Origin: Arenibacter antarcticus
Lineage (GTDB): Bacteria > Bacteroidota > Bacteroidia > Flavobacteriales > Flavobacteriaceae
DNA: 64,000 nt
Assembly: GCF_041320605.1 (NCBI RefSeq)
Contig: NZ_CP166679.1
Coordinates: 3,334,001 to 3,398,000 of the forward strand
Direction: 5' to 3'
Of this stretch, positions 3,353 to 26,244 are shown piece by piece (position 1 is the first letter of the stretch; every line of letters begins with the position of its first letter). Position numbers and translations under genes: made by a program. The notes under the pieces are model-generated. The model was not told the DNA's origin. It saw only the letters and a list, made by a program, of their open reading frames with translations, and searched no databases.

Positions 3353-3393
3353 ATTTTGATAGCCAAGGCTTTTTTTATTTGGAAAATGTTCTT

Positions 3394-4935: not shown

Positions 4936-5011
4936 TAAATAATAGGCTTTATAATAATTATGGATCTTAATCTAAAAATTCTTAGACCCTTGGGTCGGGG
5001 TTTTCTATTCA

Positions 5012-5054
5012 CCTCTCCTTGGGAGAGGTCAGAACTGTCATTTTGGACAGTTCT
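5012..5054. repeat. Two tandem hairpins in an intergenic spacer
   Basis: Positions 5012-5018 and 5022-5028 pair perfectly (CCTCTCC/GGAGAGG, 3-nt loop). Positions 5031-5039 and 5046-5054 pair perfectly (AGAACTGTC/GACAGTTCT, 6-nt loop). They lie in the spacer between the biotin carboxylase and carboxyltransferase genes. They may be an interspersed palindromic repeat or an mRNA processing/stability element that sets subunit ratios. No strong T-tract follows directly on the transcribed (minus) strand. Confidence 0.6.
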
Positions 5055-5087
5055 GGGTGTGTAAAATAAAAAATTTTTATAAATTTT

Positions 5088-7064: not shown

Positions 7065-7293
7065 GTTATGTGGTTTTCTTCTGCTGCTTGGGACTAAGAT
7101 ATGTAAAAGATTTAAAAAACCTACGCAGCTATTTTGCAAGGTTAACTGCCTAATTTTAAAATTATATCGAGGTTCCATATGAAAAATGGGTGTACTATAT
7201 CTTGTTGTAAGCTAATCTATTAGTTAGTTTTTTGATATAGGAAAGGGGGCAGGGTCTTCTTGATAAAAGAAATAGGATGAAATTGTCCGAATT

Positions 7294-7955: not shown

Positions 7956-7971
7956 TATAAAACACCCTTAT

Positions 7972-8553
7972 ATGAAGCCAATCATTAACTTAAAATCATG
8001 TCTCGCATCATTTTTTATACTGGGTCTAGTATTCAGTTGTAAAAATGAGGGCAAAACCGCAACGACGGATACCTCCAATTCTACGGAAACTGGAATTAAT
8101 GCAAATCAGGGCCAGGCCTTCATAGAGGATGATGGTTCTACGCCTAATGTGCTAAATATTGCTATAGGCTCGCCAGATCATACCACTTTGGTAGCGGCCG
8201 TGCAGGCAGCAAGTTTGGAAAATGTGTTGGTAAATGCGGGACCTCTTATGGTTTTTGCGCCTACCAATGAGGCATTTGACGCCTTGCCCGAAGGTACAGT
8301 GGAAGATCTATTGAAACCGGAAAACAAGGAGGCCTTGGCTAATATTTTAAAGTTCCATGTAACCCCCGGCAATTACAGCAAGGATTTTATAAAGAAATTT
8401 AAAAAATTGGGACAGGCAAACAACCAGAGTGTTCCCGTTGAGGTAAAAGGGGAGGATGTCTATGTTGGCGGTGCAAAAATAATTGCCAGTATCCCTGGCG
8501 GCAATGGAATTGTACATGTGGTGGATAAGGTAATGTTGCCTCCTACAGAATAA
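7972..8553 (+). CDS. Fasciclin-domain lipoprotein
   Basis: A 193-aa secreted lipoprotein with lipobox VFSC (Cys23). A Ser/Thr-rich linker precedes a single fasciclin (FAS1) domain from about residue 55 to the end. The two conserved FAS1 boxes are visible: MVFAPTNEAFDALP near 87-100 and LKFHV near 124-128, with the terminal IVHVVDKVMLPP strand. FAS1 domains mediate adhesion or protein-protein contacts and have no known catalytic role in N2O reduction. Its place between the cytochrome and nosZ suggests an envelope scaffold or partner for NosZ, which is inference. Confidence 0.85.
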   Translation: MKPIINLKSCLASFFILGLVFSCKNEGKTATTDTSNSTETGINANQGQAFIEDDGSTPNVLNIAIGSPDHTTLVAAVQAASLENVLVNAGPLMVFAPTNEAFDALPEGTVEDLLKPENKEALANILKFHVTPGNYSKDFIKKFKKLGQANNQSVPVEVKGEDVYVGGAKIIASIPGGNGIVHVVDKVMLPPTE

Positions 8554-8587
8554 TACTAAATAAAGAATAAACAATTAAATAGTTGAA

Positions 8588-10549: not shown

Positions 10550-10574
10550 TTTTACTTATTTTTAGTTTTTTAGG

Positions 10575-10610
10575 AAAGCGGGCGATGTTTAAGAACTGCC
10601 CGCTTTTTTA
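10575..10610 (+). terminator. Intrinsic terminator or attenuator after nosZ
   Basis: AAAGCGGGC at 10575-10583 pairs perfectly with GCCCGCTTT at 10598-10606, followed by a T-tract. The stem is 9 bp with a 14-nt loop. Because nosL-nosDFY continue on the same strand 70 bp later, it probably lowers rather than abolishes downstream expression, or the distal genes have their own promoter. Confidence 0.7.
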
Positions 10611-10678
10611 ACAAATAGCACTATGCAACATCCTACCAAAACACTTTTCAATTCGTAATTGTATTAACAAGAAAAGAC

Positions 10679-11323
10679 ATGAAAAAAGCAAGTATATTAA
10701 TGATTATTGGCTCACTGTTATTACTGGGACTCTTTGTTTTTCCATTATGGAATATTATGCTGGGGGCTCCGCAATATCCGGAACCGTTGGGAATGAATAT
10801 TCATATAGATGGAATTAGGGGGGTTGAGGAATTTGACATTCAAAATATAGATGGCTTAAATCACTATATTGGGATGAAAACCTTACCTAAAGCAGAAGAG
10901 ATGTGGGAATTTAGTGCTTTTCCATTGGTAATTGGAGGAATGGTGTTTCTTGGGGTATTGATAGGGCTTCTTGGATTTTTAAACAAGGTAACCTATAAAT
11001 GGTTTATTGGTTGGTTTGTGTTGATGTCCATTCTGGGACTTTTGGGGATGTACGATTTTAATGCTTGGATGACCGATTATGGTACCGATCTAAATCCCCG
11101 TGCCATTATGAAACTTACCCATCCAGATGGTACACCTATGACCTATAAACCGCCATTATTGGGAAATGCGAAAATCCTGAATTTTAATGTTATTTCAATA
11201 CCTGGTTTAGGAGGTTATCTTCTATTTTTAGGAATGCTGCTTACTGTTGTGGCTTCCTATTTAGGATGGAAAAGCAGTAAACCCAAATTAAACAGCGAAT
11301 CCAATGAAACGACAGCCACATAA
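10679..11323 (+). CDS. Polytopic membrane protein of the nos cluster (possible NosB)
   Basis: 214 aa with four hydrophobic helices: residues of about 5-26, 78-102, 106-125 and 178-200. A loop of about 50 residues after the first helix is predicted to face the periplasm. There is no catalytic motif. A transmembrane protein of unknown function called NosB is reported immediately downstream of nosZ in clade II clusters, and position and topology fit that assignment. I have not verified homology, so no symbol is given. It is followed by nosL 16 bp later. Confidence 0.7.
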   Translation: MKKASILMIIGSLLLLGLFVFPLWNIMLGAPQYPEPLGMNIHIDGIRGVEEFDIQNIDGLNHYIGMKTLPKAEEMWEFSAFPLVIGGMVFLGVLIGLLGFLNKVTYKWFIGWFVLMSILGLLGMYDFNAWMTDYGTDLNPRAIMKLTHPDGTPMTYKPPLLGNAKILNFNVISIPGLGGYLLFLGMLLTVVASYLGWKSSKPKLNSESNETTAT

Positions 11324-11339
11324 TTTTAAGATATATAGA

Positions 11340-11771
11340 ATGAAAAAGTATTTTATCCCTACTATTTTATTGTTAATACTGACTTCTTGTAGTATTAAAC
11401 CGCAACCTATAGATTACGGGTCGGATGCGTGCTACTATTGTAGCATGACTATTGTTGATAGGCAACACGCTGCCCAAATAGTGACCGAAAAGGGCAAAGC
11501 GTTTAAGTTTGATGCCACGGAATGTATGATGAACCATTTAAATGATATCAATAGTAACGAAATAGCCCTTTTCTTAGTAAATGACTATTCCAACCCGGGA
11601 GTATTGATAAATGCTACCAAGGCTTTTTATTTGATCAGTGAGGGAATACCAAGTCCCATGGGAGAATACTTAACGGCTTTCGGAGCAAAGGAAGGAGTAG
11701 AGGAAGCCATGTTGATCCATGAGGGAGATCAACTAAACTGGGAGCAGCTTAAATTGAGATTTGAGTATTAA
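11340..11771 (+). CDS. nosL: NosL copper-chaperone lipoprotein
   Basis: Copper-binding lipoprotein that delivers Cu(I) for assembly of the NosZ CuZ site. The ATG at 11340 gives 143 aa with signal and lipobox LTSC (Cys17). This start is preferred because it places the signal peptide at the N-terminus and leaves 16 bp after the previous gene. The conserved NosL motif is CYYCSM (Cys31, Cys34, Met36), followed by a downstream FDATECMMNHL segment. Family proteins are 150-200 aa, so this is a compact member. It acts with NosDFY encoded downstream. Confidence 0.9.
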   Translation: MKKYFIPTILLLILTSCSIKPQPIDYGSDACYYCSMTIVDRQHAAQIVTEKGKAFKFDATECMMNHLNDINSNEIALFLVNDYSNPGVLINATKAFYLISEGIPSPMGEYLTAFGAKEGVEEAMLIHEGDQLNWEQLKLRFEY

Positions 11772-11861
11772 GGAATATTTCATAAAAGTACTAGTCGACC
11801 ATAATTTGGTGCTCTGCCTGGTACGTACTATTTGTTGAACAAAATATTGAGAATTGAATAA

Positions 11862-11981
11862 ATGATGTACAACATAAATAAACAAATAAAAGATCAAAAA
11901 TACAAGCAATTGCAAGGGCAGAAAGCGATTATTCACCTGGTTTCTGTGGAAGAAAATTATAAATTCTTGAATGTTAGATAA
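11862..11981 (+). CDS. Small ORF (39 aa) translationally coupled to nosD
   Basis: An ATG at 11862 (with a second ATG directly after) opens 39 codons rich in Lys, Gln, Asn and Ile. It contains a central KQIKDQKYKQLQGQKA stretch and ends VEENYKFLNVR. Its TAA at 11979-11981 shares its last base with the nosD ATG (TAATG). That arrangement is typical of translational coupling and is hard to explain by chance alone. No signal peptide, membrane helix or known family is visible. It may be a leader peptide setting nosD translation, or a small protein in its own right. Confidence 0.45.
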   Translation: MMYNINKQIKDQKYKQLQGQKAIIHLVSVEENYKFLNVR

Positions 11982-13219
11982 TGGAGCGTAAACATGTTGT
12001 ATTGTATGTGATTTTGCTCTTGCTTGGAACTAAAATGTGGGCCTCTACTATTACGGTCTGCAAAACCTGTCCCATAAAGACCATTAAGGAGGGAATAGCC
12101 CGGGCGGCGGATTTTGACACTATTTTAATCAAAAAAGGAACGTATCATGAATTCAATATTCGGATTACCAAACCCTTGACCTTAATAGGGGAGGACTATC
12201 CTATTATTGATGGGCAGGAGCAAGGTGAGATTATTCAGATAGCAGCCAATAACGTTACAATTGAAGGGGTATTTATTAAAAATGTGGGCACAAGCTACAC
12301 TTCAGACTATGCAGCTATCCGCGTTATAAGAAGCGAAGATTTTCTGATACAGAATGTAAAATTGGAAAAGTTGTTTTTTGGCATCTATCTGGAAAAATCA
12401 AAAAATGGGAAGGTGCTTAACAATAAAATTGTCGGAGATGCGAAAGATGAATACAATTCAGGAAATGGCATTCAACTATGGCATTCGCAAAACATCATAG
12501 TAGCCAATAATTCTGTACAGCGGGTTAGAGATGGCATTTATTTGGAATTTTCGGACGATATACTAATCGAGAATAACTATAGCGCCAATAATCTGCGTTA
12601 CGGTTTACATTTTATGTTTTCCAATGATGATATCTACAAAGGGAATACTTTTGAGAATAATGGGGCAGGGGTAGCGGTGATGTTTTCCAAAAGAATAAAA
12701 ATGCTGGGGAATACCTTTAGAAAAAACTGGGGTACAGCTTCTTTTGGAATGTTATTAAAAGAGATCAACGATGCTGAAATTTATGGAAACACCTTTGAGG
12801 AGAATACTGTAGGGATTAGTATAGAGGGTTCTAACCGAATAGATTACAAAAACAACGATTTTATAAGAAACGGATGGGCCATAAAAGTGCGTGGTGCCTG
12901 TTATGCCAATACCATTACCAATAATAATTTTCTTTACAATTCATTTGATCTGGCCTACAACAGTAATTTGAATGATAATATTTTTGAAGGGAATTATTGG
13001 AGTAGTTATACTGGCTATGATCTAAATCGGGACGGTATAGGGGATGTGCCCTTCAGACCCGTAAAATTATTCTCATATATTGTAAATAGGACGCCAGAAA
13101 CTATTATTCTCTTGCGAAGTCTGTTTATGGATATAATAGATTTTTCAGAAAAAGTATCTCCGGTCTTTACTCCGGACAATTTAGTTGATGCAAAACCATT
13201 AATGAAAAAAAATAAATGA
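11981..13219 (+). CDS. nosD: NosD, periplasmic beta-helix copper-transfer protein
   Basis: Periplasmic partner of the NosFY ABC transporter, needed for maturation of the CuZ centre of NosZ. The 412-aa protein has a Sec signal (cleavage after MWAS, about residue 23). Parallel beta-helix (PbH1/CASH) repeats run from about residue 40 to 350, with many N-N-x-I/F ladder positions such as NKIVGD, NNSVQRVRDG and NTFEENTVGI. The C-terminal NYWSSYTGYDLNRDGIGDVPFRP segment is a strong NosD signature. It starts within the stop codon of the small ORF and overlaps nosF by 4 bp (ATGA). Confidence 0.94.
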   Translation: MERKHVVLYVILLLLGTKMWASTITVCKTCPIKTIKEGIARAADFDTILIKKGTYHEFNIRITKPLTLIGEDYPIIDGQEQGEIIQIAANNVTIEGVFIKNVGTSYTSDYAAIRVIRSEDFLIQNVKLEKLFFGIYLEKSKNGKVLNNKIVGDAKDEYNSGNGIQLWHSQNIIVANNSVQRVRDGIYLEFSDDILIENNYSANNLRYGLHFMFSNDDIYKGNTFENNGAGVAVMFSKRIKMLGNTFRKNWGTASFGMLLKEINDAEIYGNTFEENTVGISIEGSNRIDYKNNDFIRNGWAIKVRGACYANTITNNNFLYNSFDLAYNSNLNDNIFEGNYWSSYTGYDLNRDGIGDVPFRPVKLFSYIVNRTPETIILLRSLFMDIIDFSEKVSPVFTPDNLVDAKPLMKKNK

Positions 13220-13926
13220 TACAGGTAGAAAACCTACATAAAAAATTCGGAACAAATCCGGTACTGACCGGACTGGATCTTAACATCCATGGGGGCGATA
13301 TATTTGCTGTCCTAGGTCCCAATGGCTCTGGGAAAACAACCTTGATTAAAACTATACTGGGAATGGTAATTCCAGACAAGGGGACCATCTCCGTTATGGA
13401 TACTGCCATTAAAAATAAATGGAAATACCGACAGCAAATTAACTATTTGCCCCAGATTGCCAATTTTCCGGGTAACCTTAGAGTCAAGGAATTGATTGAA
13501 ATGATTAAGGATATACGGCAAATTCCCAGTGAGGAGGAAAAACTTATCACCCGATTTGGTTTGGAGCCTTTTTTGGACAAGAAACTGAGTAATCTGTCCG
13601 GGGGAACCAAACAAAAAGTAAATATTGTACTGACCTTTATGTTCGATTGTCCTCTAATTATATTGGATGAGCCTACTACCGGATTGGATCCAGTGGCACT
13701 GATCAGATTAAAAGAGTTGATATTTGAGGAAAAGGCCAAAGGAAAGACTTTTTTAATTACCTCCCATATTATGCAGTTTGTTGAGGAAGTAACCGATGAG
13801 GTGGTCTATCTTCTCGAGGGTAAAATATATTTTAAAGGTAGTATAAGTGCCCTGAAGACGAAAACGGGACAATCTAATTTTGAACATGCCATTGCGGCAA
13901 TATCTACACAGAACGATCATGATTAA
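13216..13926 (+). CDS. nosF: NosF, ABC transporter ATP-binding protein
   Basis: Cytoplasmic ATPase of the NosDFY complex. The 236-aa protein shows Walker A GPNGSGKTT (about residues 35-43), signature LSGGTKQKVN (about 127-136) and Walker B LIILDEPTTGLDPV (about 149-162). A switch histidine is in ITSHIM. It overlaps nosD by 4 bp at its start and nosY by 8 bp at its end, so the three proteins are made together. Length and motifs are canonical for NosF. Confidence 0.95.
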   Translation: MIQVENLHKKFGTNPVLTGLDLNIHGGDIFAVLGPNGSGKTTLIKTILGMVIPDKGTISVMDTAIKNKWKYRQQINYLPQIANFPGNLRVKELIEMIKDIRQIPSEEEKLITRFGLEPFLDKKLSNLSGGTKQKVNIVLTFMFDCPLIILDEPTTGLDPVALIRLKELIFEEKAKGKTFLITSHIMQFVEEVTDEVVYLLEGKIYFKGSISALKTKTGQSNFEHAIAAISTQNDHD

Positions 13927-14701
13927 AATATTAAAATATAGTTTTTACGATCTTATGCGCAGTCGCTGGAGCTACGTATATTTCTTGTTTTATCTGCTGT
14001 TGGGCTTTGTACTGTTGTTTTTAAACAGCGAGCTGTCTAAGGCTGTAATTACACTGATGAACGTCATTATTGTTTTGGTACCTTTAATCGGGACAATTTT
14101 TGGAGTGATGTACTATTATAACTCCAAGGAATTTACCGAACTACTATTGGCTCAACCCATAAAACGCTCCTCCATATTTTTCGGGCAATATCTAGGTGTT
14201 GCCGGTTCCCTTACCATGAGTTTGGTGTTGGGGCTTGGGATTCCCTTTGTTTTATACGGGTTATTTGAAAGTAATGCCATTTGGGATTTTTCATTATTGC
14301 TTATTACTGGGGCATTTTTAACAATGATATTTACGGCACTTGCTTTTAATATTGCTCTTTCCAATGAAAATAAAATTAAGGGATTTGGATATGCTGTATT
14401 GGTCTGGTTGTTTCTAGCAGTAATCTATGACGGTCTGTTTCTAATGTCTTTGATTATCTTTGAACAATACCCATTAGATAGCTTTTCTTTGATCGCTACT
14501 ATGTTCAATCCTATAGATCTTTCTAGGACCCTTATTCTATTAAAATTGGATATCTCGGCACTATTAGGGTATACAGGAGCAATATTTAAACAGTTTTTCG
14601 GAACTAATTTAGGTCTAATAATGTCTGTGGTTATGCTTGCGCTATGGACGATCATACCAGTTTGGCGATTGGGATATAAATCTAGGAGAAAGGATTTTTA
14701 A
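13919..14701 (+). CDS. nosY: NosY, ABC transporter permease
   Basis: Membrane permease of the NosDFY complex. The ATG at 13919 gives 260 aa and overlaps nosF by 8 bp; open codons further upstream lie deep in nosF and are rejected. Six hydrophobic helices are visible, for example VYFLFYLLLGFVLLFLN and VIIVLVPLIGTIFGVMYYYN. The YYNSKEFTELLLAQPIKRSSIF coupling segment is characteristic of NosY-type permeases. The predicted start and coupling to NosF support the assignment. It is followed 84 bp later by the oxidase-like membrane protein. Confidence 0.94.
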   Translation: MIKILKYSFYDLMRSRWSYVYFLFYLLLGFVLLFLNSELSKAVITLMNVIIVLVPLIGTIFGVMYYYNSKEFTELLLAQPIKRSSIFFGQYLGVAGSLTMSLVLGLGIPFVLYGLFESNAIWDFSLLLITGAFLTMIFTALAFNIALSNENKIKGFGYAVLVWLFLAVIYDGLFLMSLIIFEQYPLDSFSLIATMFNPIDLSRTLILLKLDISALLGYTGAIFKQFFGTNLGLIMSVVMLALWTIIPVWRLGYKSRRKDF

Positions 14702-17336: not shown

Positions 17337-17801
17337 CTATTCCCAAAACAAATCCTTGGTATTATCCACGAACTTGGTTTCGGGATGTAATTCTGATATG
17401 GTATTCATTTGTTCTTCCGTTGCAACTTTTTGAATTTCGTTAAAAAGGATCCTTTCCTCAAACCTAATATGGTTTTCTAGCTCTTCCTCTATTAGACTTA
17501 TAATTTTCTTAAGCTCTGTGGAAGTATTAAATAGTCGCTCTAACCTTCTGTGTTGTGCAATGGCCTTTTTCACCAACTCATGGTCATTGCCCAATATTGG
17601 AAAAATATATTTCTCTTCTACTTCAAAATGGGGCACCAAATGTGTGGCATAAAACCAGTCCATATAGGTTTTCATCCGTTCCATGGATATTCCTTTTGAA
17701 AAACCTGTCCGTATTTTCCACGATAACAATAATCCTTGGTGATGCTCCCTGCTTATAGGCTGCATTGCCTTGTGTCTTTTAATTGGTTTTTTTTGTTCCA
17801 T
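17337..17801 (-). CDS. Hemerythrin-domain protein
   Basis: 154-aa four-helix di-iron protein. Metal ligands can be read in REHHQGLLL (about residues 19-21), HLVPHFEVEEKYIFPIL (His and Glu), QHRRLERLF and NHIRFEERILFNEIQ. There is no N-terminal ScdA domain, unlike the RIC protein at 18605-19330. Such proteins bind O2 or NO, or sense redox state in the cytoplasm. It is separated by 11 bp from the small membrane protein that follows. Confidence 0.87.
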   Translation of the reverse strand: MEQKKPIKRHKAMQPISREHHQGLLLSWKIRTGFSKGISMERMKTYMDWFYATHLVPHFEVEEKYIFPILGNDHELVKKAIAQHRRLERLFNTSTELKKIISLIEEELENHIRFEERILFNEIQKVATEEQMNTISELHPETKFVDNTKDLFWE

Positions 17802-18604: not shown

Positions 18605-19330
18605 TTAATCATTTAATTCCTTTTCTAGGGCCTCCGATTTTGGAAAAAGAATATTATTTTCCAAATGGATATGTCTGTGTAAATCCTCCTCGAACTCCTG
18701 AAGCAAAGAAAAAGTTACCCTATAGGTATTACATGCATCAGCCGGAGGGGTATAATTATCACTTAATTCGTCTATCAATCTAAAGCGATCTCCTTCGTTC
18801 TCGTGCTCTTGCATCATCATCTGAATTGGATTTTGAATGGTACCAAAATGAGGTTTCTCCAAGAGAGTCCCTGTTTGTTTGGCTTTTATCATTTTGCGAA
18901 CAGCCGGGAAGAGAATTAACTCTTCTTTTTTCATATGCATGGCCAATTCCCCAGCACATTTATTAAAATGTTGAGTTATTTCCAATAGCTCTGGGTGTCG
19001 TTCCCCATGAACTCGACATAGTTTGGCCAAGTATTGATTTAAAATCGGGATTTGTGCCTCAACATACCTATGGTGTGTTTTTTCTATATAATCGGCAAGC
19101 AGATCTAGGGGCCAAGTCTTAAAATCAATAGTATCATCGTTTTTTTGATCCTGTACCGATTCAATTTCCTTTAAAAGTAGGTTTGCATCTATTTTGTTTT
19201 TTTCGGCGACTTCTACAATGCTCCTATTTCCCTTACAGCAAAAATCTATTTTATGATTTTTAAAAACTTGTGCGGTACGATAATTTTCGGCTACAATTTC
19301 ACCAATGTTTTTCGTCATTAAATTTTCCAT
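18605..19330 (-). CDS. ric: Iron-sulfur cluster repair di-iron protein (RIC/ScdA/YtfE)
   Basis: Repairs Fe-S clusters damaged by NO or peroxide. The 241-aa protein has the ScdA N-terminal domain with the conserved FKNHKIDFCCKGNRS (Cys31-Cys32). A hemerythrin-like di-iron domain follows, with ligands in KTHHRYVEAQIP, HGERHPELL, HMKKEELILFP, MMQEHENEGDRF and HIHLENNILFPK. Length and domain order are canonical. RIC genes are hallmark members of NsrR/NorR-type NO regulons. This supports reading the whole minus-strand block as NO-responsive. A cupin gene ends 18 bp upstream. Confidence 0.94.
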   Translation of the reverse strand: MENLMTKNIGEIVAENYRTAQVFKNHKIDFCCKGNRSIVEVAEKNKIDANLLLKEIESVQDQKNDDTIDFKTWPLDLLADYIEKTHHRYVEAQIPILNQYLAKLCRVHGERHPELLEITQHFNKCAGELAMHMKKEELILFPAVRKMIKAKQTGTLLEKPHFGTIQNPIQMMMQEHENEGDRFRLIDELSDNYTPPADACNTYRVTFSLLQEFEEDLHRHIHLENNILFPKSEALEKELND

Positions 19331-19348
19331 ATTATTAATTATTAATTA

Positions 19349-19645
19349 TTAAATATTAAAATGTATAGTAGAATCTTTTGCCATTATGGCAACGGCCTTA
19401 AAATTTTCTAATATTTTAAGACTGTGTTCCATGTTTGCTGGAATCAATAAGGTGGATCCTTTTTCTAAAAAGTATTCCTTCCCTTCTGCATTGAGAAAAG
19501 CTTCCCCTTCCTGTACTACGATTACCGCCTCTTTAGTGCTGTGGTGTAGTGGCATTTCTGTACCAGCCAAAGCATTTATTTGTAATATTTTTAGAGAATC
19601 ACCTACTTCTAAATGTGTCAATTCAGGTCTATTTGATATTACCAT
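19349..19645 (-). CDS. Small cupin-domain protein
   Basis: 98-aa single cupin. The first motif GTEMPLHHSTKEAVIVVQEGEAFLN carries the His-His-Glu pattern. The second motif GSTLLIPANMEHSLKI carries a late His, giving a full metal-binding set. It overlaps the end of the tryptophan dioxygenase gene by 17 bp, so the two are translationally linked. Function is unknown; cupins of this size can be small-molecule binders, dioxygenases or sensors. Confidence 0.85.
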   Translation of the reverse strand: MVISNRPELTHLEVGDSLKILQINALAGTEMPLHHSTKEAVIVVQEGEAFLNAEGKEYFLEKGSTLLIPANMEHSLKILENFKAVAIMAKDSTIHFNI

Positions 19646-20561
19646 GATCTAAAATTTTATGGTTTGTTCCCCAGTGTTCAATTTCATCCTTGGACCACAA
19701 CGAAGGGAAAAATTTTCGTTGCTGATATTTTGGATGTAAATATTTCTTCCATTCGGATCCGCCCGTTGCTTCTTTGTTTTCACCCTTACTATTTAAATAA
19801 TGTTCAGCGGTGTTCAAATGAATCAACGGCCATTCTACATTATAAAGCTTGTCAAAGCTGCGGAGCTTATGCCTAAGGGCATCCGGTATATAGGGGAGTC
19901 GTTCTAACTTATCTTCCAAGGTATTGCCCAACAAGCCGTTGGCCGTAGCTATAAATTTCTTTAAGTATTTATCTTCGAACAACTGTAGTGTCAATGATTT
20001 TTTACCGGTTTTTGGGTTGGTACCCGCATCTTTCCAATAAATTTTATCAAAACACTCCCGCAAATCTGGGTTATTTGAAAGTTGATTTTTATAGTTATTG
20101 CTGATTAAATTCACCAAGGAGGTACAATGGAGTTCAATCATTCGAAATTGAGCACATTGAAAACCGCTTGCAGGCGTAAGGGTAGATCGGAAGGTGTTGT
20201 AATCATCATAATTCATCCCAGTCCTCATTATATCGAAAGAGCTGATCAACATGGAGGTATATTTTATTAGTCGCTCTAATTTCACCATCAAAAAATCAGT
20301 AGTAATCTCCTTTTCGGCCACAACCTGTTCTAGTTCATGGAGCATCATTTTTAAAAATAGCTCCGTGACTTGGTGGTACATGATAAAAATGGATTCGTCC
20401 TTGAAATTAGTCCTAGGCTTTTGGAGGGAAAGTAAGGTGTCTACCTCTATATAATCCCAATAAGTAATGGGTTTGGCATGTAAAAGCCCTTTTAAGTAGG
20501 TCTCAGGATTTTCTCCTAGCGCAACGTATTTTTCGGAAATTTTATCAATGGTATTGTCCAT
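19629..20561 (-). CDS. Tryptophan 2,3-dioxygenase family heme protein
   Basis: 310-aa member of the TDO family, which uses heme to open the indole ring of tryptophan to N-formylkynurenine. The distal-pocket segment ESIFIMYHQVTELFLKMMLHE matches the family's FI-x-x-HQ-x-x-EL motif. LIHLNTAEHYL followed by ATGGSEWKKYL and FFPSLW corresponds to the proximal-His and TGGS region. It lies in an NO-related operon between a membrane protein (3-bp gap) and a cupin (overlap), not beside kynurenine-pathway genes. That raises the possibility of a different substrate or an NO-related role. Confidence 0.85.
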   Translation of the reverse strand: MDNTIDKISEKYVALGENPETYLKGLLHAKPITYWDYIEVDTLLSLQKPRTNFKDESIFIMYHQVTELFLKMMLHELEQVVAEKEITTDFLMVKLERLIKYTSMLISSFDIMRTGMNYDDYNTFRSTLTPASGFQCAQFRMIELHCTSLVNLISNNYKNQLSNNPDLRECFDKIYWKDAGTNPKTGKKSLTLQLFEDKYLKKFIATANGLLGNTLEDKLERLPYIPDALRHKLRSFDKLYNVEWPLIHLNTAEHYLNSKGENKEATGGSEWKKYLHPKYQQRKFFPSLWSKDEIEHWGTNHKILDHGNIK

Positions 20562-20564
20562 GGT

Positions 20565-21002
20565 TTACTTTTTATGATAATTAAGTCCATATATAAAAAG
20601 GGCAGCGACTTTTACGACTTCCATTCCCACAAAATAAATGTGGGCGTGTGAGATTGGTACTATTTTATTTTCAATAACGGCATCGGCCCTTATGTCTAAA
20701 ATTGGCAATAGAACAAGGGTCTGGATTACTAAGATAGATATGGGAATAAGTAGGTATAGATTGCTCCATCTAATAATTTTTCCGGCTGTTCTATAAATTT
20801 GGATCATTATGATCAAAGCCAATGCCCATTCTACTTTATTTAATGCGTGAAATACCAATTTCCCTATTTTTAATCCCAAGGGCAGGGAGAGTTCGGCAAC
20901 TTGGAATTTTAGCCACGCCTCCATAAAGCTTATGGCCCCTACAAAACCTATCCATATAAAAACGGAGGCGGGTATTATGGGGTATTTTGTTGCTATTTTC
21001 AT
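20565..21002 (-). CDS. Four-helix membrane protein of unknown function
   Basis: 145 aa with four predicted helices: about residues 10-30, 48-70, 80-102 and 118-140. A histidine-containing SHAHIYFVGMEVVK opens the last helix. Two conserved-looking His (VFHAL and SHAH) could bind heme, but this is speculation. It overlaps the upstream globin gene by 4 bp and is followed 3 bp later by the tryptophan dioxygenase gene. That places it firmly inside the operon. Confidence 0.75.
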   Translation of the reverse strand: MKIATKYPIIPASVFIWIGFVGAISFMEAWLKFQVAELSLPLGLKIGKLVFHALNKVEWALALIIMIQIYRTAGKIIRWSNLYLLIPISILVIQTLVLLPILDIRADAVIENKIVPISHAHIYFVGMEVVKVAALFIYGLNYHKK

Positions 21003-21388
21003 ATCAGTGTCTTTCTGTTGTTGGTGTTGAAGGATTTAATTTTTAAATGGAACATTTCTGCCATTTTATTTGCCCTCCATTGGGCTTCCTCTGCCTTTTC
21101 TCCTTCAAAATTCTCGTTCAGGGTTTGATCGAATAAAAATACCCATCGCTCAAAATGATCCTTTTCAACGGCTAGGTTAACATGGGGCATAAATGGATTT
21201 CCGTAGTAGGAACTTGTACCCAGTAATACCGTACCCCAAAACGTGCACATTTTTTTTAAATGCCCTTCCCAATTATCTTTGATTACTTCGTTAAAAAGAG
21301 GTGCCAACATACTGTCTTTCCTTACTTTGTAATAAAAGGCATCTACCAAGAGTTGAATGTCACCTATATGTTGTATTGAATGTTTCAT
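20999..21388 (-). CDS. Group III truncated haemoglobin (second paralogue)
   Basis: 129-aa 2-over-2 globin, group III. The B-helix FYYKVRKDSMLAPLFNEVI, the E-helix FWGTVLLGTSSYYGNPFMPH and the proximal region HFERWVFLFDQTLNENFEGEKAE are clear. It shares the family with the protein at 16070-16465 but is quite different in sequence, so the two are not a recent duplication. Its ATG overlaps the stop of the preceding gene (TAATG) and its end overlaps the next gene by 4 bp. It is thus tightly coupled to the cbb3-like oxidase module. Confidence 0.9.
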   Translation of the reverse strand: MKHSIQHIGDIQLLVDAFYYKVRKDSMLAPLFNEVIKDNWEGHLKKMCTFWGTVLLGTSSYYGNPFMPHVNLAVEKDHFERWVFLFDQTLNENFEGEKAEEAQWRANKMAEMFHLKIKSFNTNNRKTLI

Positions 21389-21810
21389 TAGAAAAACGAC
21401 TTATATAGTTCTGGGTTCCAGTACATAATTATATAGAACATGGCAAAGCCTACGAATGATATAATCAGGGCCCACACCCAAGCTGGGATGGCTTTTGGGG
21501 TCTCAGATCCCCGTATTACGAACGAATCCTTGGTTTCACTCCCATAGGCGTTAATGGTAATTGGAATTTGGGTGTCCACTACCTCATTATTTTTAAGTCC
21601 CACCACAGAAATAGAGGGACCGTTGCGGACTTCAAACGGAATGGTCCTAATTCCTTCCACATTATTGGATGACCTTGCTACAATCTTTAGAATATGTTTG
21701 CCATCGGGTATCTTGGTCGTGTCCAACACAAACTTTACCGGTGGCGCAAACTCTGCAAAAGGTTGCTGCTCCTCATCTAGATATACCTTTATAATTCTAT
21801 TGTCCTCCAT
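21388..21810 (-). CDS. Membrane-anchored protein with an Ig-like domain, oxidase module
   Basis: Starting at the ATG at 21810 gives 140 aa and a short (14-bp) overlap with the previous gene; a start nine codons earlier is open but less likely. Residues of about 10-100 look like one beta-sandwich (DTTKIPDGKHILKIVARSS, then IPFEVRNGP). This resembles FlgD/Ig-like folds. One helix near the C-terminus (VWALIISFVGFAMFYIIMYW) anchors the protein. No family is recognised. It may be an accessory subunit, analogous in position to CcoH/FixH, but I see no homology to them. Confidence 0.7.
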   Translation of the reverse strand: MEDNRIIKVYLDEEQQPFAEFAPPVKFVLDTTKIPDGKHILKIVARSSNNVEGIRTIPFEVRNGPSISVVGLKNNEVVDTQIPITINAYGSETKDSFVIRGSETPKAIPAWVWALIISFVGFAMFYIIMYWNPELYKSFF

Positions 21811-22081
21811 CTGCTTTAAAATTTTTGTCCCAAACAATATTCTTGATATGGTCTGGACCGTTCTCTTTGGGCCGTACTAGAAATTTTATACTGAAGAACA
21901 AGGTTATAGCAACCAATATAAGGGCAGACCATGTTATGATATAATCTACGTAGCCAGTTGGTCCTCGGCCATGTGTAATGTCTTCCAAGCCTTTTGGCTG
22001 ATTCTCTTTACAGAGGTCACAGGCCATCATCATTGGTTGGTAGGCGAAGAACAGTAGCAATATGATTAAATACTTTTTCAT
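21797..22081 (-). CDS. Small membrane protein with an exported CxxC motif
   Basis: 94 aa from the ATG at 22081, chosen because it overlaps the previous stop as ATGA; an ATG three codons earlier is also open. An N-terminal signal-like helix ends in MMMAC and is followed by DLCKENQP, giving C-x2-C at the exit of the membrane. A second helix (YIITWSALILVAITLFFSIKF) follows a short loop. The CxxC could bind copper or heme or be redox-active. Assembly of the neighbouring oxidase is a reasonable guess. Confidence 0.7.
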   Translation of the reverse strand: MKKYLIILLLFFAYQPMMMACDLCKENQPKGLEDITHGRGPTGYVDYIITWSALILVAITLFFSIKFLVRPKENGPDHIKNIVWDKNFKADGGQ

Positions 22082-22314
22082 TTTCTCCAATAATCGTTTG
22101 CTGCGGCAATCGTTTGGAACTCCAAGGCGATTATCTGTGCCGAGGCTATTAACTGCTGGGTGTCGGTCGCATAGTCCGAACGTAGCTTTTTCCGCGTTTC
22201 TGGGTCGGTTTGGATCTCGGCAATGGATTTTCTTGCCAAGGTAATTGCCAATTGCCTGCCCTGAAAAGGGGTTTCTGTAATTAAACTGGTTAAATAGTTC
22301 TCCATTCCTTCCAT
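22078..22314 (-). CDS. Small helical protein of unknown function, oxidase module
   Basis: 78 aa with no signal or membrane helix. It looks entirely helical, with alternating charged and hydrophobic residues (LAITLARKSIAEIQTDPETRKKLRSD) and an Ala/Ile-rich second half. I do not recognise it. It sits 35 bp after the cytochrome c subunit gene and overlaps the next gene by 4 bp. Co-translation with the membrane proteins suggests a cytoplasmic assembly or regulatory role. Confidence 0.7.
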   Translation of the reverse strand: MEGMENYLTSLITETPFQGRQLAITLARKSIAEIQTDPETRKKLRSDYATDTQQLIASAQIIALEFQTIAAANDYWRK

Positions 22315-22349
22315 TTTAAATTATTTTATTTTTTATCTATTCTTATCGG

Positions 22350-23363
22350 TTATTGGTTGGCCTGATTTTCAATAAAAGCCCTAAATTTTTTTACATCCTC
22401 TTCCTTTACCTCTGATGCACTATTGCCCCAACTACTGCGTTCGTGGTTTGCAATAGCCGCTATTTCGGCATCGGAAAGTTGATCAGAGAAGGGTTGCATA
22501 GAGGCGTATTCGCTTCGGGCATCGTAGCCTTGTAAGATGATCCTGATCATCAGTTCAGGGTCATCGTCGTTTACGATCGGACTTCCCGCCAAAGGTGGAA
22601 ATGCTCCTGAAACCCCTTTTCCATTATCTTGATGGCATACAGCACAAGTCTGTTTGTATAGTTGTGCCCCGTTTAGGGCAGCGCTTTCTTGTTCACCCCG
22701 CATTTCTCCGGTCTGTATCTGCTTTAATGCAGGAATAAATTCCTCGACCTGTCCGTCTGGGAGCTTTACTTGCTTTAAGGATTGTAGGTAGGCTACCAGT
22801 TGTAGTGCTTCCTCCTTGGCTATGACCGTAGTTCCCGATGGAGGGGCAAATGCTTCAGGAAGGTTGACCACCACGTCCTTCTGTTTTACCGAACCGCTGT
22901 CTATCATTTGAAATAACCAAGGGTAGGAGGGCATTACAGACTCGCCCACCACGCTACGAGGATTAAACAAGTGGAGCAAATGCCAATCCTTACTGGATTG
23001 TCTTCGACCTATATCGGTAAGGTCAGGGCCCGTTCGTTCACTTCCCAAAAGGGAAGGCGATTGTCGCCATATATCCATGCGTTCCTTACTGTAATAATAG
23101 TCGGATGGAATAGAAGGGCGATCCCCCCATGTTTTATCCATCTCTATATTACGGACCTGTTGGGTATGGCAAGCCACACAACCTTCGCTGATATAGACGT
23201 GTAGGCCTTGTCTTTCACTGTTGGTCATGTTAGACTGGCCAGGTAAGGGCTCTACATCCTGCATCTGGTAGGCGGGAAATACCGCAATTAGAAAACTCAA
23301 GGATACAAAGCCAATAAGGGCAGCAAGGACAAGTATTTTATGGTTCTTATGAAAGTCGAACAT
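22350..23363 (-). CDS. Dihaem cytochrome c subunit (CcoO-like domain plus cytochrome c domain)
   Basis: 337 aa with one N-terminal membrane anchor (residues 9-30). A CcoO/FixO-like domain follows: heme motif CVACH at 62-66, with the family pattern SERTGPDLTDIGR, HLLHLFNPRSVV and SVMPSYPWL, Met144 being the likely axial ligand. A second cytochrome c domain (CAVCH at 240-244) follows from about residue 230. Two hemes are expected. Canonical cbb3 oxidases have separate CcoO and CcoP, so this looks like a compact electron-entry subunit. It lies 11 bp downstream of the catalytic subunit gene. Confidence 0.88.
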   Translation of the reverse strand: MFDFHKNHKILVLAALIGFVSLSFLIAVFPAYQMQDVEPLPGQSNMTNSERQGLHVYISEGCVACHTQQVRNIEMDKTWGDRPSIPSDYYYSKERMDIWRQSPSLLGSERTGPDLTDIGRRQSSKDWHLLHLFNPRSVVGESVMPSYPWLFQMIDSGSVKQKDVVVNLPEAFAPPSGTTVIAKEEALQLVAYLQSLKQVKLPDGQVEEFIPALKQIQTGEMRGEQESAALNGAQLYKQTCAVCHQDNGKGVSGAFPPLAGSPIVNDDDPELMIRIILQGYDARSEYASMQPFSDQLSDAEIAAIANHERSSWGNSASEVKEEDVKKFRAFIENQANQ

Positions 23364-23374
23364 TTCGTTTTATT

Positions 23375-25183
23375 TTAATTGTTCACGCGTTCCAGTAATG
23401 GAGCGTCCAATGTTTTTACTAATTTTTTATTATTTACCATATAATAAAAGTTATATGCAAAAACCAGATGTGAGACAAACATTAACGAGCCACCTATGGC
23501 ACGCCATACCCAATACGGTTTCATTAAGATTACAGACTCTAAAAAAGGATTTCCATCGATCCAGCTAAGTCCTTTCAGCGTACCACCGGCCATTAGTGAC
23601 ATCATATAAGCGAAGAGACCTATGAACGCCATCCAAAAATGGGCACCCACAAAAATTTGTGGTGGTTCCTTACCCGTTAATTTTGGCAGAATAGTATATA
23701 TGCAGGCCCAAAGAATAAATGTTATGATCCCGTACATGGTCATATGGGAGTGAGCTACGTTAAAATCGGTAAAATGCCATACATAATTGGTAAATCTGAA
23801 GGCTTGTAAGCTACCTTGTGTTGAGCCTACAAAGTAAAATATGACACCTACCAAAAAGAATGGTAGGACATAACTTTTAGAAATATGGTTCCAGCTCCCC
23901 TTCATGGTCATAAGGAAATTGGTAGTACCGGCAACTACCGGAATAAACATGCCCGCACTAAATACTATGGCGGTGGTCTGTAGCCACCAGGGTAGGGGAC
24001 TGAACACAAAATGATGGGTTCCTATCATAGTATAGAACAACATTTGTGTCCAAAAGGCCAACACCCCCAAGGAATAGGAGTAAATGGGTTTGTTAAGTGA
24101 AGAGGGAAGATAATAATATATCAATCCCAAGGTAAATGTCATAAACCACATGCCTACTCCCTGATGCATATAATAACCCTGTATTATGGTCTCACCCAGC
24201 CCGTCTTGAAAATAGGGCAAATACCCAATGATGGCCAATACAGTTGTCCAGATAAGTGCAGCCAGTATATACCAGTTGGACACGTAGATATCCTTTATTT
24301 TTCGGTTGGCAACAGTTTTGTAGAAATTCCAAAAGGTAATCACGAGGGCGATTGCGAAAAGTAGCATGACAGGCCATATATACTCCCGATATTCCCCACC
24401 TCCATTGTTGATGCCGGCCATTAATGAAAGAGTACCCAAAAGGAGGGTTAGGTTGATCAGTATCCATGAATACCAAGCACTTTTATAACTATGTATGGCG
24501 GTATTTGAAGTACGGGCTATCACAAAATAACCCAGACCAATCATAGATAAGGAGGCCCATCCCCAAAAAACGGCATTCGTATGTACTGGTCGGAGACGAC
24601 CAAAAGAAAGCCAGGATTGGCTGTCCATTTCTGGCCATATGAATTTCATACCTACATACTGCCCTACAAGTGTTCCAAAAACCAACCAGAAAACAGCGGC
24701 ACCCAAGTAATAAATTACAATTTTTTTAAGTGGTTCCGGGGTGTCTATACTGAGGGGAGTATTTTTTTTCTCATCAAACATGGGGTTTTCGGGCTCATGT
24801 GTTACCTTATTGACGAGACCTTTACGATCTATTACCTGTTGGTCGCTTCCCAATTCCTTTCCGGATAACTTATAAGTGAGGGCTTTCTTTCGCCGCTCTA
24901 AAATTAGGTCTATTTCATTCTCGTCCATACCTATCAATTCTTCGGAGAATGCCAAATCTTTCTTATGTAATTGCTTTCTTTTAAAAGAATCTATATAAGA
25001 ATTGAGTTTGGCCATTAGTATAATGACAGCGACAATGAGAACAATAAAGAGCAACACGAAAGTTCCTATTATTCCAGGGCTGCTTATCCAATTATCCGTG
25101 TTTATAGTGCTACTATTTTGTGGAAATAATAGCAGTGGTAAAAACAGAAGGAGTGGTATTATGGTAGTTGTTTTGCTATTCAT
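23375..25183 (-). CDS. cbb3-like (C-type) heme-copper oxidase catalytic subunit
   Basis: 602 aa. A hydrophobic N-terminus and an extra helix (about 36-58) precede a charged linker of about 90 residues, then the 12-helix core from about residue 150. Ligands are all present: His201 and His480 (low-spin heme b), His478 (high-spin heme), and His340, His390, His391 (CuB). Tyr384 lies six residues before the His pair and 44 after His340, as does the cross-linked Tyr of Pseudomonas CcoN. The Glu that hydrogen-bonds the proximal His in CcoN (22 residues before it) is Gln456. It is either an O2 reductase or an NO reductase; context favours NO-related work. Confidence 0.85.
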   Translation of the reverse strand: MNSKTTTIIPLLLFLPLLLFPQNSSTINTDNWISSPGIIGTFVLLFIVLIVAVIILMAKLNSYIDSFKRKQLHKKDLAFSEELIGMDENEIDLILERRKKALTYKLSGKELGSDQQVIDRKGLVNKVTHEPENPMFDEKKNTPLSIDTPEPLKKIVIYYLGAAVFWLVFGTLVGQYVGMKFIWPEMDSQSWLSFGRLRPVHTNAVFWGWASLSMIGLGYFVIARTSNTAIHSYKSAWYSWILINLTLLLGTLSLMAGINNGGGEYREYIWPVMLLFAIALVITFWNFYKTVANRKIKDIYVSNWYILAALIWTTVLAIIGYLPYFQDGLGETIIQGYYMHQGVGMWFMTFTLGLIYYYLPSSLNKPIYSYSLGVLAFWTQMLFYTMIGTHHFVFSPLPWWLQTTAIVFSAGMFIPVVAGTTNFLMTMKGSWNHISKSYVLPFFLVGVIFYFVGSTQGSLQAFRFTNYVWHFTDFNVAHSHMTMYGIITFILWACIYTILPKLTGKEPPQIFVGAHFWMAFIGLFAYMMSLMAGGTLKGLSWIDGNPFLESVILMKPYWVWRAIGGSLMFVSHLVFAYNFYYMVNNKKLVKTLDAPLLERVNN

Positions 25184-25262
25184 ATTGAGATATTAATACC
25201 TTTTTATCTTTTATCTAATTTATAAAATGTAATCTGATTTAAAGTACTATTTAAAAATTAAT

Positions 25263-25697
25263 TTACCGTTTTAAATGGGTCAACCCAATATCCAATCCAG
25301 TGGCTAATTCGTACATGGTGGTATTTTGAAGCATATGCGTAAGGTTTTCTCGTACCACCACAAATTTATGGTGTACCGGACATGGCTTTCGAGAATCACA
25401 CTGTTTTAAACCCAATCCGCATCCATGAAAAATACTGTCCCCATCTATGGCATTTACGATATCGTACAAATTTATGGTATCCATCTTGGTTCGTTCCATC
25501 TGAAATCCTCCCGTGGGACCCTTATGGGAATCTACCAAACCGTTTTTGGCAAGGGACTGTAGTATCTTCGCCGTAAAAGCTTCGGGGGAATCTATTTCCT
25601 TTGCAATTTCTTTTAGACTAACACGATTGTTGTGCAAGGACCTTACTGCAATAAATATTGTTGCTTTTATTCCGTATTCACAAGCTTTGGAAAACAT
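25263..25697 (-). CDS. Rrf2 family regulator, NsrR/IscR-like
   Basis: 144-aa winged-helix regulator. Residues 1-80 form the Rrf2 DNA-binding domain (ACEYGIKATIFIA, then SLKEIAKEIDSPEAFTAKILQSL, wing GPTGGFQ). Cys93, Cys100 and Cys106 in HGCGLGLKQCDSRKPC give the three-cysteine pattern of Fe-S-binding Rrf2 proteins such as NsrR and IscR. NsrR senses NO through its cluster. This gene heads the cbb3-like/globin/RIC block with 79 bp before the oxidase gene. It probably represses its own operon and releases it on NO exposure. I do not give the symbol because IscR-type sensors share these features. Confidence 0.87.
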   Translation of the reverse strand: MFSKACEYGIKATIFIAVRSLHNNRVSLKEIAKEIDSPEAFTAKILQSLAKNGLVDSHKGPTGGFQMERTKMDTINLYDIVNAIDGDSIFHGCGLGLKQCDSRKPCPVHHKFVVVRENLTHMLQNTTMYELATGLDIGLTHLKR

Positions 25698-25704: not shown

Positions 25705-25753
25705 CTTATATTAATTTAGTACAAATATAAGTCAAATTCTTATTTCGGACAAA
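25705..25753 (-). promoter_or_regulatory. Promoter and operator-like palindrome of the Rrf2 gene
   Basis: On the minus strand TTTG (25753-25750), 20 nt, then TATATTTG (25729-25722) forms a good Bacteroidota promoter with a predicted start near 25715. A perfect 8-bp inverted repeat, CTTATATT at 25705-25712 and AATATAAG at 25724-25731 (11-bp spacer), overlaps the -7 element and start point. Such placement suits a repressor site, plausibly autoregulation by the Rrf2 protein. Confidence 0.55.
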
Positions 25754-26244
25754 TTTATCCTAAATAATTGATTTCACCTAATTTTTTGTTATTTAAAGAA
25801 TTCAGGGGCAGTAAATTACTGCTCTCTATATAGGTGGCATCCATTTTTCCCTTAAAGAACTTCTAGGGGGTAAATATAAAAATCAAAAACGAAATCACCG
25901 CTATATTAATGTAATGTTACCATGTGTTCATGTGAAAATGGGTCCATGTGTCTATTGGTTATGTTCAGTTAAGTGTGACATTGTTATTCATTGTGAAGTG
26001 CCAATTACCGATCTATTGCTACCTTTTCTATTTTTCTTTCTATGCATATTTCCAATTTAACGTATCCCTCTAATCACAGGTTCCCAAACGACTGTGGCTT
26101 CTGTTTCTTTGGTCTTTCGTAATTTAAATAGTTACCTATATGCAATTTTTTTAGATCCTTCCCAAGACCAAAACGGGCGAACCTGAATGCTAAAGTAGCA
26201 ATGGGGTTTTATGAAAATTTTGAATAAAATTTAGAGGCAATAAC
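25754..26244. other. Divergent intergenic region between the NO block and the copper operon
   Basis: About 490 bp without a gene. Position 25808-25822 is a perfect 15-bp palindrome (GCAGTAA-A-TTACTGC). Positions 25906-25959 contain a degenerate CATGTG/AATGTGAAAAT repeat stretch like that at 133-200. No RNA gene or credible frame was seen. Confidence 0.5.

What the first reader, a model, noticed from the sequence alone, without database searches (positions are those of the whole stretch)
20565..25697. A cbb3-like heme-copper oxidase module inside an NO-response operon, possibly an undescribed NO reductase or NO-tolerant oxidase
Seen: an NsrR-like Rrf2 gene, a stand-alone C-type catalytic subunit, a dihaem CcoO-like cytochrome, three small proteins, a group III globin and a membrane protein lie in one tightly overlapping minus-strand series that continues into tryptophan dioxygenase, cupin and RIC. 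All six His ligands and the C-family tyrosine (Tyr384) are present, but the Glu 22 residues before the proximal His in CcoN is Gln456. There is no CcoP, CcoQ, CcoG or CcoS. The catalytic subunit has an extra helix and a charged linker of about 90 residues at the N-terminus. Known: cbb3 oxidases show some NO reductase activity, and several non-canonical NO reductases have been described within the heme-copper superfamily. Inferred: this enzyme reduces NO, filling the step before NosZ, since no norB is present in the window.
Basis: partly seen in the sequence, partly recalled or inferred. Interest (0 to 1): 0.8.

Follow-up and report, generated by a model that had tools for sequence, protein, structure and literature searches.

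The report
Unrecognised nitric oxide reductase in marine Bacteroidota
A misfit relative of a low-oxygen respiratory oxidase sits in a gene cluster that looks controlled by nitric oxide in Bacteroidota, and in some of these bacteria it is the only candidate seen so far for the missing enzyme that turns nitric oxide into nitrous oxide.

Summary
The genes are as described. The 602-aa protein belongs to a separate, well-supported clade of C-family haem-copper proteins in Bacteroidota. It scores 261 bits against the CcoN equivalog (cutoff 583); the same genome's ordinary CcoNO scores 662. His ligands and the C-family Tyr are kept, but the Trp one helical turn before the first CuB His, present in every CcoNO, cNOR, qNOR and aa3 row aligned here, is Gly in 91 of 91 members, and the residue before that His is Met. 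A palindrome, TTCGGAYAAATTTRTCCGAA, precedes the module's Rrf2 gene. It recurs upstream of nosZ, nirK and qNOR genes far above chance, and in this window before both the module and the nos operon. Of 45 carrier genomes, 37 have nosZ, 32 nirK, 16 norB. Sixteen have nirK and nosZ without norB; in 15 of these the only haem-copper proteins above cutoff are aa3, ordinary cbb3 and this one. Best reading: a C-family NO reductase of the denitrification/NO regulon; an NO-tolerant oxidase remains possible. Activity is untested.

The parts
25744..25763 (-). Operator palindrome upstream of the Rrf2 gene and module (consensus TTCGGAYAAATTTRTCCGAA)
   Evidence: PWM score 30.8, best in the window (this site is one of the 51 in the PWM); highest score in 300 shuffled windows 24.4
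25263..25697 (-). Rrf2-family regulator, NsrR/IscR-like; Cys93, Cys100, Cys106 and His109 conserved
   Evidence: PF02082 6e-26; conserved at 95% or more in 66 sequences; directly upstream of the module in 49 of 80 loci
23375..25183 (-). CcoN-like catalytic subunit, 602 aa; core about 150-590; N-terminal helix and charged linker in part of the clade only
   Evidence: COX1 6e-82; ccoN TIGR00780 261 bits, cutoff 583; separate clade; Gly336, Met339, Tyr384, Gln456
22350..23363 (-). Membrane-anchored dihaem cytochrome c, CcoO-like plus a C-terminal cytochrome c domain
   Evidence: FixO 4e-30, Cytochrom_C 2e-16; both CxxCH motifs conserved at 95% or more in 92 loci
22078..22314 (-). Hexameric tyrosine-coordinated haem protein (HTHP); accessory, in 30 of 81 loci
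   Evidence: PF11534 5e-33
21797..22090 (-). Small membrane protein smB: CxxC (no His) after a signal-like segment, one TM-like stretch, HIK motif
   Evidence: 67 of 81 main and 10 of 11 distant loci; conservation
21388..21837 (-). Small protein smC: beta-rich domain plus C-terminal helix (likely start ATG at 21810); probable subunit
   Evidence: Hits in 79 of 92 loci; AF2 mean pLDDT 74.4; no significant PDB fold match
20999..21388 (-). Truncated (bacterial-like) globin
   Evidence: PF01152 1.7e-7; globins in 48 of 81 loci
20565..21002 (-). Membrane protein of unknown family
   Evidence: No Pfam or NCBIfam hit; in 31 of 81 loci
19629..20561 (-). Divergent tryptophan-2,3-dioxygenase homologue; accessory, 14 of 81 loci
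   Evidence: PF03301 2e-26; TIGR03036 102 of 391 bits
19349..19645 (-). Cupin-like protein (named by eye, not scanned)
   Evidence: ORF; relatives in 28 of 81 loci
18605..19330 (-). RIC/ScdA/YtfE-type di-iron protein
   Evidence: TIGR03652 244 bits, cutoff 205; 41 of 81 loci
17337..17801 (-). Hemerythrin-domain protein
   Evidence: PF01814 2e-9; 33 of 81 loci
7272..7291 (+). Second operator copy, 160-180 bases before the first gene of the nos operon
   Evidence: PWM score 21.6, second best in the window; 6 scores of 21.5 or more in 300 shuffled windows; gene starts
7452..14701 (+). nos operon: cytochrome c, fasciclin, nosZ (8588-10549), nosL, nosD and two ABC-type genes (the last two named by eye)
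   Evidence: nosZ TIGR04246 933 bits; ORFs

Best explanation
The module is a membrane-bound, cytochrome-c-fed NO reductase that arose within the C (cbb3) family of haem-copper enzymes, separately from cNOR and qNOR. Proposed working: an Fe-S Rrf2 repressor senses NO and leaves the operator before its own gene (inferred from its cysteines and the conserved palindrome). The dihaem CcoO-like subunit takes electrons from periplasmic cytochrome c and passes them to haem b and the haem b3-CuB site (from cbb3 homology). Two NO are reduced to N2O there (inferred). smB and smC are small subunits or assembly parts (inferred). Globin, RIC, HTHP and hemerythrin proteins mop up NO or repair damage (family knowledge). 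Shown here: a distinct clade; intact metal ligands; an altered CuB helix (Trp to Gly at -4, Gly to Met at -1); an operator shared with nosZ, nirK and qNOR genes; and carrier genomes in which no other haem-copper NO reductase is seen.
For: (1) Operator within 5 mismatches in 51 of 91 module promoters, 0.7 expected (partly circular, since the motif was found in 80 of these regions). Other genes, PWM 14 or more: 16 of 36 nosZ, 9 of 14 qNOR and 12 of 30 nirK upstream regions (1.4, 0.4, 0.4 expected; one site between divergent nirK and nosZ in G476 counts in both). Controls: 1 of 16 aa3 and 0 of 14 CcoNO loci of carriers, 2 of 25 CcoNO loci. (2) Gene content of 45 carriers: nirK 32, nosZ 37, norB 16; 16 with nirK and nosZ but no norB; 15 of these hold only aa3, CcoNO and this clade above cutoff. 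(3) Phylum draw: 11 of 13 carriers have nosZ against 118 of 382 non-carriers, p=1.3e-4. (4) 70 of 81 loci hold at least one of Rrf2, globin, RIC, HHE, HTHP; no such match in 11 loci of other stand-alone C-family proteins. (5) Trp at -4 lost in 91 of 91 members, kept in all compared CcoNO, cNOR, qNOR and aa3 rows. By recall this is Trp272 of Paracoccus aa3, proposed as an electron donor in O-O cleavage, which NO reduction does not need.
Against: The cross-linking Tyr is kept (91 of 91); the cNOR and qNOR rows here lack it, eNOR has Gln, and by recall so do the other known NORs lack it. It is a mark of O2 reductases. No Glu at the cNOR/qNOR position (Gly344). Several K-path-like residues are kept. 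Haem-copper oxidases tested so far reduce NO far more slowly than true NORs (PMC8780969 passages). This genome has its own qNOR; its qNOR and nirK lack the operator, as do two cNOR loci. In the phylum draw 33 of 60 nirK genomes without the module also lack a norB detectable by my query, so module and norB do not simply replace each other, and nirK is not enriched among its 13 carriers (4 of 13, p=0.24). 13 of 45 named or own carriers have no nirK. No activity or expression data exist here.
Confidence: 0.6

Rival explanations
1. NO-tolerant O2 reductase: a cbb3-like oxidase induced by NO so that respiration continues while NO blocks the ordinary oxidases; NO is the signal and inhibitor, not the substrate.
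For: All six His ligands and the C-family Tyr are invariant; CcoO-like electron entry; several K-path-like residues kept; [quoted passage not shown]
Against: The -4 Trp kept in the aligned aa3, CcoNO, cNOR and qNOR rows is lost. The operator is shared with nosZ, nirK and qNOR genes, and nearly absent from aa3/CcoNO loci. It would leave 15 nirK+ nosZ+ carriers without any haem-copper NO reductase.
Confidence: 0.25
2. Protective NO or nitrite scavenger: the complex works with globin, RIC and HTHP to remove NO (or to reduce nitrite straight to N2O) as detoxification rather than respiration, so carriage does not depend on denitrification.
For: Stress genes in the neighbourhood; 13 of 45 carriers have no nirK; cbb3 of P. 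stutzeri reduces nitrite to N2O (PMC8780969 passages).
Against: 37 of 45 carriers have nosZ and the operator is shared with nosZ and nirK. It overlaps with the main reading: the difference is energy gain, not chemistry.
Confidence: 0.12
3. Ordinary cbb3 oxidase paralogue that happens to lie near NO genes.
For: C-family fold and ligands; best PDB match is cbb3.
Against: Less than half the ccoN equivalog cutoff; separate 100/100 clade, p-AU 0.034 against grouping with CcoNO (the group was not named before the tree was seen); invariant active-site differences; NO setting conserved in 70 of 81 loci; no CcoP among the neighbours scanned.
Confidence: 0.03

Closest known systems
cbb3-type cytochrome c oxidase (C-family; CcoN/CcoO)
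   Same: Fold, six His ligands, C-family Tyr, glutamates E264/E267, CcoO-like membrane cytochrome; best PDB hit 3mk7
   Different: 261 of 583 bits for ccoN; Trp to Gly at -4, Gly to Met at -1, Glu323 to Gln; S240 and H243 equivalents changed; no CcoP/S/G among the neighbours scanned; dihaem CcoO; two new small proteins; NO-type setting
cNOR / qNOR (NorB)
   Same: Predicted reaction; shares the operator with many qNOR genes
   Different: Separate branch in the tree; keeps the Tyr; lacks the HLWVE glutamate; 42 bits to NorB 4xyd against 226 to CcoN
eNOR, sNOR, gNOR, nNOR, bNOR
   Same: Precedent for NO reductases beyond cNOR/qNOR among haem-copper enzymes (PMC8756737 and PMC12569097 passages)
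   Different: By recall these lie outside the C family and lack the Tyr (eNOR has Gln there); none was placed in my tree apart from one B-like Tyr-less protein of unproven kind (L250)
C-family 'unknown group' (Muntyan et al. 2015, seen only as cited in passages of PMC5492636)
   Same: Named beside the authentic cbb3 clade, which is marked by a mandatory active-site Glu; may include the proteins L079-L089 and possibly this clade
   Different: That paper was not held, so membership, operon and function could not be compared

Membership tests
cbb3 oxidase (authentic CcoN) | NCBIfam ccoN equivalog score above cutoff | tested here: not met
   261 vs 583 bits; own CcoNO 662
cbb3 oxidase (authentic CcoN) | Six His ligands and C-family Tyr | tested here: met
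cbb3 oxidase (authentic CcoN) | Active-site Glu (E323 of 3mk7) | tested here: not met
   Gln456 invariant in 15 and 46 sequences; aligned
cbb3 oxidase (authentic CcoN) | CcoP and FixS/FixG partners in the operon | tested here: not met
   None among ten proteins scanned here; present at the other locus
cbb3 oxidase (authentic CcoN) | Groups with CcoN in a tree | tested here: not met
   Separate clade 100/100; grouping with CcoNO p-AU 0.034; only Bacteroidota CcoNO were used
cNOR/qNOR | Groups with NorB in a tree | tested here: not met
cNOR/qNOR | Glu four residues after the metal-B His (HLWVE) | tested here: not met
   Gly344
NO reductase (by function) | Reduces NO to N2O | not testable with these tools
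   Needs an assay
NO reductase (by function) | Loss of the cross-linking Tyr, as in known NORs | tested here: not met
   Tyr384 kept in 91 of 91
NO/denitrification regulon | Operator shared with nos, nir and nor genes | tested here: met
   with shuffles; control loci; not every such gene has it
NsrR | NCBIfam NsrR equivalog cutoff | tested here: not met
   27 vs 182 bits
NsrR | Three cysteines in the C-terminal part of an Rrf2 protein | tested here: met
   C93, C100, C106; Fe-S binding itself not testable here

The most novel reading that the evidence does not exclude
A new family of NO reductase that evolved inside the cbb3 (C) family of Bacteroidota. It keeps the His-Tyr active site but lacks the Trp on the CuB helix, is fed by a dihaem cytochrome and is controlled by an Rrf2 NO sensor, and it closes part of the 'nir and nosZ but no nor' gap seen in Flavobacteriales; by keeping several residues of the cbb3 proton path it may even conserve energy from NO.
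Probability: 0.5. Interest if true: 0.87.

Novelty: new variant of a known kind. Interest (0 to 1): 0.76.

Why it matters
Surveys report Bacteroidota with nir and nosZ but no recognised nor. A third of the nirK+nosZ Bacteroidetes in one survey lacked norB, attributed to Flavobacteriales (Graf 2014, PMC4250227 passages). A 2025 survey that used cNOR, qNOR, bNOR, eNOR, gNOR, sNOR and nNOR references still finds genomes with nir and nosZ but no nor, including 9% of Bacteroidota in its set, and leaves their route open (PMC12569097 passages). If this module reduces NO, some of these organisms are complete denitrifiers, N2O budgets inferred from genomes change, and a haem-copper enzyme that keeps the His-Tyr site yet reduces NO would help show which residues separate O2 from NO chemistry.

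Tried and rejected
Own-genome gap argument: rejected, because a qNOR is present. Gln456 as diagnostic: rejected, shared with other stand-alone C-family proteins. Simple replacement of norB: only weak support. Among nirK+ genomes, 18 of 32 carriers lack norB against 5 of 19 non-carriers of the same class, p=0.047; in the whole draw 33 of 60 non-carriers lack it too. The two sets differ in make-up (the carriers are a search product, the non-carriers a draw), so p-values comparing them are only indicative.

NirS in the 13 nirK-less carriers: none found, but the control genomes were silent too, so nothing can be said. Genome-wide operator counts: 144 matches with up to 3 mismatches against 75 for the reversed pattern over 45 genomes (sums of the table); about half are therefore chance and only position makes them informative. 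In my first control I had counted L012, a module locus, among ordinary CcoNO loci (3 of 26); without it the count is 2 of 25. Structure: AF2 mean pLDDT 67.7, weak around the active site, used only for the fold. smC: no significant fold match. The regex for Gln456 matched the wrong place and is not used. The joining of this clade with seven of nine compared stand-alone C-family proteins is strong in the quick tree (99) but weak in the careful one (81/48); the other two (L087, L088) fall elsewhere.

Rows dropped: L074 from the catalytic alignment (stop in the reference); L105, L150 and L160 from the fold alignment, which then held 45 of 80 named loci plus the window. 11 of 13 members of the 34-37% group were fetched and 9 used in the tree. 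46 of 80 named loci were sent for genome searches and 44 were held. 36 of 37 nosZ regions (the window's own apart), 30 of 32 nirK regions and 14 qNOR regions were scanned; one of the 14 is only 201 bases. Counting also the own qNOR and two cNOR loci, 9 of 17 norB places have the operator.

Papers: Murali et al. 2024 and Muntyan et al. 2015 are not held; what I say of the first is recalled or comes from PMC12569097. Searches for an earlier description: no papers; listings. Of the papers listed I read passages of PMC8780969, PMC8756737, PMC12569097, PMC8079940 and PMC5492636, and besides of PMC4250227; none of these passages describes the module, and the other listed papers were not opened. (HTHP) is a listing only. 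Searches found nothing on the Trp.


Full report
WHAT IS THERE. The minus-strand series of the finding is real. From the promoter down: Rrf2 regulator, 602-aa CcoN-like protein, 337-aa dihaem CcoO-like protein, a 78-aa hexameric tyrosine-coordinated haem protein, two small membrane proteins (smB, smC), a globin, a membrane protein, a divergent tryptophan-dioxygenase homologue, a cupin-like protein and RIC. About 10 kb away on the plus strand lies a nos operon with clade II nosZ at 8588-10549. The window lies in a 4.69-Mb, one-contig genome. The genome has four COX1-family proteins: aa3, ordinary cbb3 (with ccoS-NO-P-G-H), this protein and a qNOR.

A SEPARATE FAMILY. Protein searches show a gap. 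In the 60 close genomes (own included) five carry a copy at 77-100% identity, four of them among the 18 of the same genus; all other matches at E 1e-20 or better are at 29-33%. In a draw of 395 genomes of the phylum 13 carry a copy at 51% or more (own included), and 13 more reach E 1e-70 at 34-37%. A scan of named genomes gave 444 relatives, of which the best 80 were kept; all 80 are Bacteroidota by record title. The 14 clade members used are one branch with full support, apart from CcoNO, cNOR and qNOR. Forcing it together with CcoNO gives p-AU 0.034. It fails the ccoN equivalog (261 of 583 bits), which the genome's own CcoNO passes (662).

ACTIVE SITE. All His ligands, the C-family Tyr and the pair of glutamates E264/E267 are kept. 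The helix that carries the first CuB His reads QGYYMHQGVG instead of QWWYGHNAV. The Trp four residues before the His is Gly and the residue just before it is Met in 91 of 91 members (the window, 79 loci from a scan seeded partly on this very stretch, and 11 from a plain protein search). Every compared CcoNO, stand-alone C-family, cNOR, qNOR and aa3 row has Trp there; the Tyr-less B-like enzyme of Gelidibacter japonicus has Tyr. By recall, this Trp is Trp272 of Paracoccus aa3, discussed as a radical donor in O-O bond cleavage; my two paper searches found nothing on it, and a review read in passages says the donor residue is still debated (PMC8780969). The Glu-to-Gln change at 456 is real but also present in other stand-alone C-family proteins. 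Of residues that by recall line the cbb3 proton path, Tyr356, Tyr384, Asn422 and Tyr450 are kept, and the Ser240 and His243 equivalents are changed.

REGULON. Searching the promoters for palindromes gave TTCGGAYAAATTTRTCCGAA, mostly about 60 bases before the Rrf2 start. 51 of 91 promoter regions hold it within 5 mismatches, with 0.7 expected (partly circular). The independent test used other genes in the same genomes. Scores of 14 or more occur upstream of 16 of 36 nosZ, 9 of 14 qNOR and 12 of 30 nirK genes (expected 1.4, 0.4 and 0.4). One site, between divergent nirK and nosZ in G476, counts in both. Controls: 1 of 16 aa3 and 0 of 14 CcoNO loci of carriers, and 2 of 25 CcoNO loci of the genomes. 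qNOR/NorB loci of the phylum draw also show it, 8 of 19 besides the own one. In this window the two best sites are before the module (30.8) and before the nos operon (21.6); 6 sites of 21.5 or more turned up in 300 shuffled windows. Against: the own qNOR and nirK lack it, and so do two cNOR loci; counted genome-wide with up to 3 mismatches, the pattern is only about twice as frequent as its reversed control (144 to 75). The regulator's three cysteines are conserved, and a homologue sits in a NorB-NirK cluster of Lunatibacter. Regulation by NO is inferred from these facts.

GENOME CONTENT. Of 45 carrier genomes, 32 have nirK, 37 nosZ and 16 norB (15 of 44 named plus the own one). Sixteen have nirK and nosZ but no norB. 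A search with the whole COX1 family shows that 15 of these 16 hold just three such proteins above the cutoff, which by score and length are aa3, CcoNO and this one; three of the 15 show an extra match below the cutoff. The sixteenth, Gelidibacter japonicus, has a fourth, Tyr-less B-like protein behind a COX2-like gene, with a strong operator match about 650 bases before the COX2-like gene (26.8). In five of the 16 the module lies 9-31 kb from nosZ. In the phylum draw 11 of 13 carriers have nosZ against 118 of 382 others (p=1.3e-4), while nirK (4 of 13, p=0.24) and norB (4 of 13, p=0.07) are not significantly enriched. Against a simple swap: 33 of 60 nirK genomes without the module also lack norB by my query; some may have other NOR types that I did not test.

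NEIGHBOURS. Of 81 loci (window plus 80), Rrf2 is present in 62, a globin in 48, RIC in 41, hemerythrin in 33, the unknown membrane protein in 31, HTHP in 30, and at least one of Rrf2/globin/RIC/HHE/HTHP in 70; for the 11 distant loci the last figure is 9. In 11 loci of the 34-37% group none of these queries matched. The conserved core is CcoN-like, CcoO-like, smB and smC.

JUDGEMENT. Membership in the NO/denitrification regulon is well supported (I put it near 0.9). Being an NO reductase is the best reading (0.6): it explains the shared operator, the carriers that have nirK and nosZ but no other haem-copper NOR, and the loss of a residue linked to O2 chemistry. The kept Tyr is the main argument for an oxidase. 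The finding bears on an open question in print: Bacteroidota with nir and nosZ but no nor (PMC4250227 and PMC12569097, passages). I found no paper describing this module within the searches, which cover open-licence papers only and of which most listed papers were not opened. A C-family 'unknown group' was named in 2015 (seen only as cited in PMC5492636), so the sequences may have been seen before without a function.

Noticed in passing
L250 (Gelidibacter japonicus genome, G464:C28), 2674-6080: COX2-like cupredoxin subunit, a Tyr-less B-like haem-copper protein (GHTIANE) and an SCO-like protein (by eye), with a strong operator match at 2674 (score 26.8): a candidate alternative NO reductase.
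   Followed up: partly
window 19629-20561: Divergent tryptophan-2,3-dioxygenase homologue (102 of 391 bits for TIGR03036) inside an NO operon, in 14 of 81 loci; possibly a haem protein with another role.
   Followed up: no
window 22078-22314: A hexameric tyrosine-coordinated haem protein travels with this module in 30 of 81 loci, which hints at a link of HTHP to NO or peroxide stress.
   Followed up: partly
L063 11124-11252 and L064 10857-10958: In two Arenibacter relatives a second, partial smB-like stretch lies before HTHP, as if smB had been duplicated.
   Followed up: no
L070, L071, L073-L077: In the distant branch a further stretch like the cytochrome c domain follows smC, separate or fused, so electron entry may differ between subclades.
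   Followed up: no
window 14834-16006: 390-aa membrane protein with a His-rich helix after the nos operon, without a Pfam hit; relatives in 11 of 81 loci.
   Followed up: no
L251 639-1073 (Lunatibacter): An Rrf2 homologue of the module's regulator sits in a NorB-NirK cluster (NorC/E/Q/D named by eye) that lacks a recognisable operator of this type.
   Followed up: partly
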